Origin: Psychromarinibacter sediminicola
GTDB taxonomy: Bacteria; Pseudomonadota; Alphaproteobacteria; Rhodobacterales; Rhodobacteraceae
Length of the DNA stretch: 63,619 bases
Assembly: GCF_029168335.1 (NCBI RefSeq)
Contig: NZ_JARGYC010000023.1
Location: forward strand, 1 to 63,619
Reading direction: 5' to 3'
Every line of letters begins with the position of its first letter. The first letter of the stretch is position 1. A model generated the notes under the pieces. It ran no database searches. It was given only the letters and a program-made list of their open reading frames with translations, and was not told the DNA's origin. Below, one piece after another: positions 45,282 through 46,676 of the stretch. A program made the position numbers and the translations under genes.

Positions 45282-45704
45282 TCAGGCATCGGGATCGACG
45301 GGGCCGCGCAGTGCCTTCTTCTGGCCGCGGGCCTTCTTCGACTCGACCCGGCGCCGCTTTGACGCCAGCGTCGGGCGGGTGGGAATGCGGCGGCGCGGGC
45401 GTTCCAGCGCCTTGCGGATCAGCTCGACAAGGCGGTCGCGGGCAATGTCGCGGTTGCGGGCCTGATGGCGCGTCTCGTCCACCCGGATCAGCATCGCGCC
45501 GTCATTGGTCCAGCGCCGCCCGGCCAGCCGCTTCAGGCGCCGCTTCACCGGATCGGGCAGGTTCGGCGACCGCTCCGCCTCGAACCGCAGCTCGACGGCG
45601 GTGGCGACGTTGTTCACGTTCTGCCCGCCGGGGCCGCCGGCGCGGGTGAACTGCTCGGTCAGTTCCCAGTCCTCGATCGCGATCTGGTCGTTGATTCTCA
45701 GCAT
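45282..45704 (-). CDS. arfB: alternative ribosome-rescue aminoacyl-tRNA hydrolase ArfB
   Basis: The protein has 140 residues. The catalytic GGQ motif is in EQFTRAGGPGGQNVNNVATAVELRF. The basic C-terminal tail (RIPTRPTLASKRRRVESKKARGQKKALRG) that enters the empty mRNA channel of stalled ribosomes is present. It hydrolyses peptidyl-tRNA on ribosomes lacking a stop codon, backing up tmRNA. Upstream on the same strand is a separate transcription unit with a striking match to the 16S rRNA 3' end (45755-45950). Confidence 0.94.
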   Translation of the reverse strand: MLRINDQIAIEDWELTEQFTRAGGPGGQNVNNVATAVELRFEAERSPNLPDPVKRRLKRLAGRRWTNDGAMLIRVDETRHQARNRDIARDRLVELIRKALERPRRRIPTRPTLASKRRRVESKKARGQKKALRGPVDPDA

Positions 45705-45754
45705 GGCCCCGGTTCCGCGTTGACGGGCGCAAGGATAACGCGCCGGGGCGCAAC

Positions 45755-45781
45755 GAAAAGGGCCGCCATGTCCGGCGGCCC
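45755..45781 (-). terminator. intrinsic terminator of the arfB-upstream transcript
   Basis: On the minus strand GGGCCGCC / GGCGGCCC with a six-base loop is followed by TTTT. It ends the unit starting near 45950, about 50 bp before arfB, so arfB expression must read through it or start later. Confidence 0.8.
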
Positions 45782-45950
45782 CTCGAGTCCTTATGGAGAA
45801 GTTCGGTTAGGACCTTTCTTCAGTCCAATCGAAAGGAGGTCCCTCTTCGGGGCTGCCCTCAGACGGAATATCCTCCGACTGTTCCGACACCTTTCTCCAA
45901 TATCGCTCTAGACACTGGATCACCTCCTTTCGCTGGTTTCTGATAGGGGC
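45755..45950 (-). ncRNA. candidate structured small RNA or leader upstream of arfB
   Basis: The 336-bp gap 45705-46040 holds no long gene but has a full transcription unit on the minus strand. It comprises TTGACA at 45973-45978 (within ACAGA-N7-TCTGT), a transcript start near 45945 and the terminator at 45755-45781. The RNA contains GAAAGGAGGTGATCCAG (45915-45931), a 17-base exact complement of the 16S rRNA 3' end, and ACCTCCTTTCG (45830-45840), able to pair with it over 11 bases. Two small frames are open. MSRAILEKGVGTVGGYSV (GTG 45915) has ideal ribosome-site spacing. A frame ending GPPFDWTEERS at 45807 has more protein-like composition but no well-placed start. Whether it is an sRNA, a leader or a micro-gene is undecided. 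Confidence 0.45.
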
Positions 45951-45972
45951 AGCGTCGCACAGATTTTGTGTC

Positions 45973-45978
45973 TGTCAA
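45973..45978 (-). promoter_or_regulatory. -35 box of the arfB-upstream unit
   Basis: A perfect TTGACA on the minus strand is overlapped by the inverted repeat ACAGA (45959-45963) / TCTGT (45971-45975). No good -10 hexamer is seen at 16-18 bp, so strength is uncertain. Confidence 0.4.
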
Positions 45979-46040
45979 ATGTTTTCACGCAAGCTCTGGC
46001 GAATTTCTGACGCCCCTGGAAACATGTGCCGAAAATGCGC

Positions 46041-46676
46041 TCAGGCGGGCCGCGCCCCGCGCATCCGGTCGACGATGATCCGGAACGGGATCAGCGCGAT
46101 CAGCGCCAGCGTCAGCTTCACCATCCAGTCGGCGACGGCCAGCGAAACCCAGAGCGGAACGACCGGCCCCGCGCCCAGAAGCGGCAGCGTCTCGTTCGCC
46201 CAGCTCACGTCGTTCGCCGGCTCGATAAAGGCGAGGCCGGCGGAGAAGGCGATGGTGAAGAAGATCGCCGTGTCCACGGTGGAGCCGATCAGCGTCGAGG
46301 CCAGCGGCGCGCGCCACCAGCGGCCCTCGCGCAGGCGGTCGAAGATCGCCACGTCCAGCAGCTGTGCCGTCAGGAAGGCAAGGCCCGAGCCGATGGCGAC
46401 GCGGAGCGTCACGGCCGGGTAGGTGAAACCGTCGCCCTGCAGCGTGATCTGGGTGCCGATCAGGGAGCAGGCCACACCGGTGAGAAAGCCCGCGAAGACG
46501 ACCTTGCGCGCGGTGGCGGGGCCGTAGACGCGGTTCATCACGTCGGTGACGAGGAAGGCCAGCGGATAGGTGAAGGCGCCCCAGGTCAGCCATTGACCGA
46601 ACAGGAACTGGACGAGGATGTTGGACGCCACGACGATGGCGGCCATGGCGAGGATGCCGGGGAGGATACGGGTCAT
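46041..46676 (-). CDS. yhhQ: queuosine precursor transporter (YhhQ/VUT family)
   Basis: The protein has 211 residues with about six membrane helices. QWLTWGAFTYPLAFLVTDVMNRVYGPATARKVVFAGFL is the VUT/ECF-like signature, and PLASTLIGSTVDTAIFFTIAF and AVADWMVKLTLALIALIPFRIIV follow. It takes up queuosine precursors (preQ0 or preQ1). Its upstream region can fold into hairpins (46694-46728), but these do not match the preQ1 riboswitch classes I know. QueG is encoded elsewhere in the window. Confidence 0.92.
   Translation of the reverse strand: MTRILPGILAMAAIVVASNILVQFLFGQWLTWGAFTYPLAFLVTDVMNRVYGPATARKVVFAGFLTGVACSLIGTQITLQGDGFTYPAVTLRVAIGSGLAFLTAQLLDVAIFDRLREGRWWRAPLASTLIGSTVDTAIFFTIAFSAGLAFIEPANDVSWANETLPLLGAGPVVPLWVSLAVADWMVKLTLALIALIPFRIIVDRMRGARPA

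What the first reader, a model, noticed from the sequence alone, without database searches (positions are those of the whole stretch)
45755..45978. Small transcription unit upstream of arfB that mimics and masks the ribosome anti-Shine-Dalgarno
On the minus strand the predicted RNA carries GAAAGGAGGTGATCCAG, an exact 17-base complement of the 16S rRNA 3' tail (CTGGATCACCTCCTTTC), far longer than a normal ribosome site. About 80 bases later ACCTCCTTTCG occurs, itself a copy of the 16S tail and able to form an 11-bp helix with the first segment. The unit has its own TTGACA and its own terminator and lies directly before the ribosome-rescue gene arfB. It could sense free 30S or rescue demand, act as an anti-Shine-Dalgarno sRNA (Rhodobacter CcsR-type RNAs carry CCUCCUCCC loops), or encode a micro-peptide. 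Sequence facts are direct; function is inference.
Basis: partly seen in the sequence, partly recalled or inferred. Interest (0 to 1): 0.75.

Follow-up and report, generated by a model that had tools for sequence, protein, structure and literature searches.

The report
Self-locked micro-ORF RNA with maximal ribosome-binding site
A short bacterial RNA, related to a database family described as a Caulobacter small RNA, looks like a tiny self-locked messenger that pairs with the whole free tail of the 16S ribosomal RNA to start an 18-codon reading frame.

Summary
In detail: the minus strand carries GAAAGGAGGTGATCCAG, a 17-base complement of the family's 16S tail, and a segment (45830-45840) that folds onto it. 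It is not arfB-specific. It is a divergent relative of Rfam RF01867 (Caulobacter sRNA CC2171; 39.8 bits, cut-off 75). The motif occurs in 70 of 113 sampled alphaproteobacterial genomes and 1 of 186 other Proteobacteria. Selection seems to keep a start codon (first base A, G or T, never C, in 87 rows) and, in 51 of 53 Rhodobacteraceae-type elements, a stop at codon 19 (three stop types, no TGG against 9 expected). Codon positions show no selection on the peptide. In those 53 the Shine-Dalgarno pairs with an arm just before the terminator (99% of cells) and the start codon sits in a hairpin (99.5%). Best reading: a short fold-back-locked mRNA with a maximal Shine-Dalgarno; what it controls is unknown, and neither transcription nor translation was observed. 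An arfB leader or a CcsR-type sRNA is not supported.

The parts
45973..45978 (-). -35 hexamer TTGACA of the unit's own promoter
   Evidence: within one mismatch in 48 of 52 Rhodobacteraceae-type loci. The scan found no full sigma-70 match.
45915..45931 (-). GAAAGGAGGTGATCCAG: maximal Shine-Dalgarno, complement of the 16S 3' tail (its last base is also the first base of the GTG start)
   Evidence: the core recurs across the class.
45859..45915 (-). 18-codon ORF GTG...TGA (MSRAILEKGVGTVGGYSV)
   Evidence: ATG, GTG or TTG in 84 of 87 core rows of the class search; stop at codon 19 in 51 of 53 Rhodobacteraceae-type elements.
45896..45919 (-). hairpin UCCAGUGUC/GAUAUUGGA that buries the start codon
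   Evidence: Alignment A1 helix 3, 99.5% of cells paired; MFE of the window RNA.
45830..45840 (-). anti-Shine-Dalgarno arm ACCTCCTTTCG, the form used in the window's genus
   Evidence: Best Shine-Dalgarno partner in the 5 genus members examined, -15.2 to -17.9 kcal/mol; pair probabilities.
45795..45801 (-). CTTCTCC, degenerate copy of the arm that most Rhodobacteraceae-type elements use before the terminator
   Evidence: Alignment A1 columns 144-153.
45754..45784 (-). intrinsic terminator of the unit
   Evidence: changes on both sides in 7 of 8 pairs of the aligned hairpin (helix 7). Not listed by the simple scan.
45759..45939 (-). full-length match to Rfam RF01867 (CC2171), positions 1-159 of 159
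   Evidence: 39.8 bits, E 3.5e-7, gathering score 75.
45282..45704 (-). arfB-like gene (neighbour, not part of the element)
   Evidence: PF00472.
46041..46676 (-). Vut_1 transporter gene (neighbour upstream)
   Evidence: PF02592; upstream in 49 of 51 Rhodobacteraceae-type loci.

Best explanation
It is a stand-alone RNA of about 195 nt that works as a tiny structure-gated mRNA. A Shine-Dalgarno complementary to the whole free 16S tail lies seven bases before the start of a micro-ORF (18 codons here). In the finished transcript the RNA folds back on itself: an anti-Shine-Dalgarno arm, or in several other groups a strand pairing with codons 2-6, lying 5' of the terminator covers the initiation region, and in Rhodobacteraceae-type elements a hairpin also hides the start codon. 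Translation would happen in the interval before the arm is transcribed, when 30S subunits are plentiful enough to win the full duplex, or after the 3' part is removed. Because start, stop and length are kept but the peptide is not, the act of translating, and its effect on the RNA's state or life-time, is probably the function rather than the peptide. Shown by sequence: homology, start/stop constraint, conserved folds. Inferred: transcription here (and its start), translation, gating, and the role.
For: Start codon: in the 87 core rows taken from the listed part of a search of 387 class genomes, the unconstrained first base is A 40, G 39, T 8, C 0. Stop: TGA 29, TAG 16, TAA 6 at codon 19 in 53 Rhodobacteraceae-type elements, TGG 0 against 9.1 expected if the two bases were independent; codons 2-18 free of stops in frame 0 in 53 of 53, while frames +1 and +2 hold a stop in 32 and 34. 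Sphingomonadales-type: 18 codons in 26 of 27. Fold: 94.5% of cells paired in A1 against 41.8-59.3% when partners are slid; 104 cells changed on both sides against 38.2 shuffled, 0 of 500 shuffles as high. Shine-Dalgarno paired 0.86 against 0.61 shuffled in the Rhodobacteraceae type. Codons 2-6 with the pre-terminator strand, own strand / strand of another group / shuffled: -9.6/-4.6/-6.0 in MSH(C), -13.2/-5.5/-5.8 in the Sphingomonadales type, -7.3/-5.5/-4.9 in MSS. The 16S duplex (-25.2 to -32.2 kcal/mol) exceeds the computed cost of opening bases 1-21 (2.7-20.6) in 53 of 53.
Against: No expression or translation data for this organism. Third positions are not more variable (0.261, 0.260, 0.285 in the Rhodobacteraceae type; 0.324, 0.352, 0.232 in the Sphingomonadales type), so coding rests on start and stop. 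The structure was derived from the same alignment, which favours it over slid versions, and the Shine-Dalgarno helix changes on one side only. Outside the Rhodobacteraceae type the Shine-Dalgarno is not more paired than in shuffles. The codon 2-6 helix is weak in the Rhodobacteraceae type (-5.4/-4.2/-4.5) and in the mixed group (-5.9/-5.0/-5.5), absent in the Bradyrhizobium type (-4.3/-4.5/-5.6); strands swapped between members of one group pair nearly as well as their own (e.g. -13.2 and -13.2, -8.5 and -9.6), so within-group covariation is slight. In 3 of 5 genus members opening bases 1-21 costs only 2.7 kcal/mol. Groups were formed partly by peptide motif and many loci were collected by the DNA motif, so conservation there, and the seven-base spacing, is partly by construction; two further hits (L026, L052) have one base less. 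Rows are related by descent.
Confidence: 0.5

Rival explanations
1. Non-coding regulator or sponge: the GGAGGUG segment titrates anti-Shine-Dalgarno-type sRNAs, or the CCUCC-like arm, when released, blocks mRNA ribosome sites; the ORF is incidental.
For: RF01867 is filed as an sRNA. Sponging of sRNAs with an anti-Shine-Dalgarno motif is known in Caulobacter (CrfA and SisA-D; abstract and passages of PMC12559287). The CCUCC-like arm is conserved.
Against: First base of the start codon never C in 87 rows, stop kept with three codons, and complementarity running on through GATC, which a generic Shine-Dalgarno mimic does not need.
Confidence: 0.2
2. Ribosome decoy: the RNA occupies the anti-Shine-Dalgarno of free 30S subunits and lowers initiation, for example in stationary phase.
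For: Complement of the whole free tail, the strongest site in the window by far; the duplex beats the lock in 53 of 53.
Against: A decoy needs no start or stop codon; the predicted resting fold hides the site in the Rhodobacteraceae type.
Confidence: 0.12
3. The peptide itself is functional (micro-protein, mostly 14-32 residues).
For: Similar residues within groups, e.g. KRCHLAGIAR in the Bradyrhizobium type and MSRVILERGVGT in the Rhodobacteraceae type.
Against: No codon-position signal; little shared between groups beyond MS; the similar stretches overlap paired RNA strands.
Confidence: 0.12
4. Cis-acting leader or attenuator of arfB, tied to ribosome rescue.
For: arfB follows in the window and in 34 of 47 Rhodobacteraceae-type loci.
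Against: 0 of 117 loci in other groups have arfB downstream on the same strand (one MSS locus has a match elsewhere); 13 of 47 Rhodobacteraceae-type loci lack it too; the unit ends in its own terminator.
Confidence: 0.05

Closest known systems
Rfam RF01867, CC2171 (Caulobacter sRNA)
   Same: Full-length alignment, shared GAAAGGAGGUGAUCCAGUGUCU block, terminator.
   Different: 39.8 bits against the 75-bit cut-off; the closing CAUUGUC/GACAAUG helix is not kept, and a Shine-Dalgarno arm and a start-codon hairpin appear instead. Rfam treats it as an sRNA gene; the start and stop evidence here suggests a micro-ORF.
icaR mRNA of Staphylococcus aureus (PMC3868564, abstract and outline)
   Same: A 3' segment of the same mRNA pairs with the Shine-Dalgarno and interferes with initiation.
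   Different: icaR encodes a repressor protein; no full-tail 16S complementarity is described in the abstract; unrelated sequence.
Type I toxin mRNAs (aapA3, PMC6733600, abstract and outline; hok, recalled)
   Same: Small ORF whose Shine-Dalgarno can be hidden by mRNA structure, with folding during transcription as a control.
   Different: The peptides here do not look like hydrophobic toxins; an antisense antitoxin was not sought.
Extended Shine-Dalgarno sites of S. aureus (PMC13009471, abstract and passages)
   Same: Extended pairing with the 16S tail drives initiation, including at small ORFs.
   Different: There a general feature of initiation sites; here one RNA, its 15-base core unique in the assembly.
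rnTrpL/peTrpL of Sinorhizobium (PMC10117765, passages)
   Same: Short alphaproteobacterial RNA carrying a micro-ORF; an sRNA that is translated.
   Different: It is a leaderless trp attenuator; this one has a leader, a maximal Shine-Dalgarno and no fixed downstream gene.

Membership tests
Rfam RF01867 (CC2171) | score at or above the curated gathering cut-off (75 bits) | tested here: not met
   39.8 bits; 5 of 96 class genomes exceed it.
Rfam RF01867 (CC2171) | significant full-length alignment including the 5' block and terminator | tested here: met
   E 3.5e-7, model 1-159 of 159; 11 of 12 loci given, the window's own copy among them, match at E up to 0.01, L013 does not.
Rfam RF01867 (CC2171) | helix between the codon 2-6 region and the strand before the terminator | tested here: inconclusive
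   Strong in MSH(C) and Sphingomonadales-type elements, weak in the Rhodobacteraceae type.
CcsR-type anti-Shine-Dalgarno sRNA (features recalled) | CCUCCUCCC loops | tested here: not met
   No CCTCCTCCC on the minus strand 45750-45980 (read); the invariant motif is GGAGG.
arfB leader or attenuator | arfB downstream wherever the element occurs | tested here: not met
   34 of 47 Rhodobacteraceae-type loci, 0 of 117 other loci.
Type I toxin mRNA | short hydrophobic peptide | tested here: inconclusive
   Peptides such as MSRVILERGVGTVRGAVA carry charges and differ between groups; judged by reading, no hydropathy calculation.
Type I toxin mRNA | antisense antitoxin RNA | not tested
   No transcript data.
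Translated micro-ORF | start and stop codons under selection | tested here: met
Translated micro-ORF | synonymous (third-position) excess | tested here: not met

The most novel reading that the evidence does not exclude
A class-wide translation-capacity switch: an RNA whose locked and open states are set by free 30S subunits carrying an intact 16S 3' tail, read out through a length-fixed mini-translation event. It would be a ribosome-sensing counterpart of a riboswitch, conserved across the Alphaproteobacteria.
Probability: 0.2. Interest if true: 0.9.

Novelty: new variant of a known kind. Interest (0 to 1): 0.62.

Why it matters
An RNA kept across much of a bacterial class is filed as a Caulobacter small RNA, and my searches for its name brought up no paper that gives it a function. 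The evidence here suggests that it is a tiny messenger: a ribosome-binding site matching the whole free 16S tail, a start and stop that selection seems to keep, and a lock on the initiation region that is apparently built from different strands in different groups. If right, it is a natural test of what very strong Shine-Dalgarno sites do, and a candidate readout of free ribosomes in Caulobacter, Rhodobacter and rhizobia, where genetics is easy.

Tried and rejected
StsR was my first guess for a known Rhodobacter sRNA; a paper search listed papers on it, but I read none and did not compare its sequence, so that identity is untested; RF01867 then explained the region. A motif search of the literature found 954 papers, 40 listed, which by title look like users of a 16S primer; not informative. 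L001, the second 13-base match in the genome, is not a 16S gene. Sequestration of the Shine-Dalgarno above shuffled level was tested in six groups and seen in the Rhodobacteraceae type only. A codon-position test for coding failed. A pseudoknot between the start-hairpin loop and the pre-terminator strand in the Rhodobacteraceae type is weak: 70.5% of cells paired, two of five pairs mostly unpaired. The simple scan found no promoter and did not list the terminator. A longer frame that is open in the window (read by eye) is closed by a TGA in most of the 30 aligned relatives.

Rows dropped: of 203 loci, 3 were skipped on purpose (L001, and two further copies of the window) and 11 had no motif hit; 189 elements, 184 distinct; 178 had enough flank and 169 a terminator by my rule. 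Groups were made by peptide motif; same-family elements of another type (L210-L212, L215) are not in the 53. The 87 rows come from the listed part, which says that more matches are not listed; rows identical to the 16S complement were left out when typing (107 typed, 90 with the AGGAGGTG core, 3 more 16S-like removed). Three of the 87 lack an NTG start (GTA twice, GCA once).

Full report
What is there. On the minus strand between a Vut_1 transporter gene (46041-46676) and an arfB-like gene (45282-45704) lies a unit with TTGACA at 45978-45973, GAAAGGAGGTGATCCAG at 45931-45915, ACCTCCTTTCG at 45840-45830 and a terminator hairpin at about 45784-45754. No copy of the 16S 3' end is in the assembly, but a 16S gene of the same family ends CGGCTGGATCACCTCCTTTCT, so the 17-base complement holds for the family. 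Over 42,400 stretches of the window the site binds that tail at -32.8 kcal/mol; the next best is -23.1. The simple promoter and terminator scan listed neither a promoter nor this hairpin.

What it belongs to. Rfam's gathering threshold finds nothing here, but a permissive search gives a full-length match to RF01867, 'caulobacter sRNA CC2171': 39.8 bits, E 3.5e-7, cut-off 75. Of 12 loci given, the window's own copy among them, 11 match at E up to 0.01. In 96 class genomes the family is found in 21, above its cut-off in 5; of 14 control genomes only Caulobacter vibrioides rings. By the curated cut-off it is not a formal member; by descent I take it as a divergent relative. With a pattern allowing two mismatches, 70 of 113 alphaproteobacterial genomes and 1 of 186 other Proteobacteria match, the last with two mismatches inside the block (the split is my count of the rows). 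In the window's family, 50 of 61 genomes match the 231-base query (my count) and 5 of the other 11 hold an element-like sequence, four of them with an ATG start and one with GTG.

Is it translated? In a search of 387 class genomes with the first base of the start codon left free, the 87 core rows of the listing show A 40, G 39, T 8 and C 0 there; ATG 40, GTG 36, TTG 8, others 3. The seven-base spacing from GGAGG is set by the ungapped pattern and is not evidence; two other hits have one base less (L026, L052). In 53 Rhodobacteraceae-type elements, grouped by peptide motif, the frame ends at codon 19 in 51, by TGA 29, TAG 16 or TAA 6; TGG would be expected 9.1 times and is not seen. Codons 2-18 are open in frame 0 in 53, in the other frames in 21 and 19. 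The Sphingomonadales type keeps 18 codons in 26 of 27, and eight Bradyrhizobium-type elements keep 14. Against coding, third positions are not clearly more variable than first and second, and peptides share little between groups beyond MS. I read this as selection on translating a frame of set length, not on the peptide. Rows are related by descent, so the counts are not independent.

How it folds. In alignment A1 of 53 Rhodobacteraceae-type elements, RNAalifold pairs GGAGGUG with C..(A/G)(U/C)CUCC just before the terminator, and UCCAGUGUC, which holds the GUG start, with GAUAUUGGA. Cells paired are 99.1% in the main Shine-Dalgarno helix, 100% for its extra pair and 99.5% in the start hairpin; the whole structure gives 94.5% against at most 59.3% when partners are slid, with the caveat that it was derived from the same alignment. 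Changes in the Shine-Dalgarno helix are on one side, as the other is invariant, and nearly all keep pairing (G-U to G-C, U-A to U-G). Changes on both sides are seen in an internal helix (81.9% paired) and the terminator (96.9%). So the lock seems to have been rebuilt in this genus from another strand. In other groups a similar fold-back uses codons 2-6 and the strand before the terminator, e.g. CAUUGUC/GACAAUG, AAUGAGAUU/AAUCUCAU, CAUGGUUCAGC/GCUGACCAUG. Own strands beat those of other groups clearly in MSH(C), Sphingomonadales-type and MSS elements, little in the Rhodobacteraceae type and the mixed group, not in the Bradyrhizobium type; swaps within a group pair nearly as well. Shine-Dalgarno pairing above shuffled level was seen only in the Rhodobacteraceae type.

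Context. arfB follows on the same strand in 34 of 47 Rhodobacteraceae-type loci and in 0 of 117 loci of other groups, where one has a match elsewhere; Vut_1 precedes in 49 of 51 and 0 of 118. The largest neighbour clusters, from a crude ORF caller, contain only members of one group as far as listed. I take the unit as its own gene, not an arfB leader.

How it probably works. The duplex with the 16S tail (-25.2 to -32.2 kcal/mol) outweighs the computed cost of opening the first 21 bases (2.7-20.6) in 53 of 53, so a 30S subunit could open the lock if it meets the RNA; kinetics and protein contacts are ignored. During transcription the site is made before its lock. I propose a self-locked short mRNA that is translated early or when 30S subunits are abundant, with the translation event setting the RNA's fate. 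Sponge, decoy and peptide readings remain open and are listed as rivals.

What is known. A search for Caulobacter with CC2171 found no paper; one for RF01867 or CC2171 listed 17, of which two concern the family as far as titles and passages show: a table line in the Rfam 15 paper (one added covarying pair) and a line of a prediction table in Mesorhizobium huakuii (passages only, the other 15 not opened). A 2015 Caulobacter study names only tmRNA and crfA as non-coding RNAs with characterised function, housekeeping RNAs apart (passages). Another reports that only 24.6% of Caulobacter coding sequences have a Shine-Dalgarno (PMC4117421, passages). That CC2171 was first described by Landt 2008 is recalled; that paper is not held and was not read. 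Close mechanistic parallels are icaR (abstract and outline), aapA3 (abstract and outline) and extended Shine-Dalgarno sites in S. aureus (abstract and passages). S. meliloti Ribo-seq indicates that some annotated sRNAs are translated (passages).

Noticed in passing
window 45958-45971 (minus strand) and the same region of relatives: Just after the -35, many Rhodobacteraceae-type loci keep a sequence like ACACAAAATCTGTG, a small inverted repeat that could be an operator.
   Followed up: no
L215, oriented element: One same-family genome carries CCGGATCACCTCTCC before its terminator, almost a copy of the 16S tail itself, as a possible lock arm.
   Followed up: no
G427 (C23, C24), G434 (C2), G072 (C1): Some genomes hold two copies of the element or its motif.
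   Followed up: no
RF01867: The Rfam cut-off of 75 bits leaves out most relatives found here: 5 of 21 class genomes with a match exceed it, and the Rhodobacteraceae-type loci tested score about 31-43.
   Followed up: partly
L062, L085: Two loci titled Gemmatimonadetes or Gemmatimonadota carry the motif; possibly mis-binned alphaproteobacterial contigs, not checked.
   Followed up: no
G000 assembly: No exact copy of the complement of the 16S 3' end is found apart from this element, so the 16S gene seems to be missing from the assembly.
   Followed up: partly
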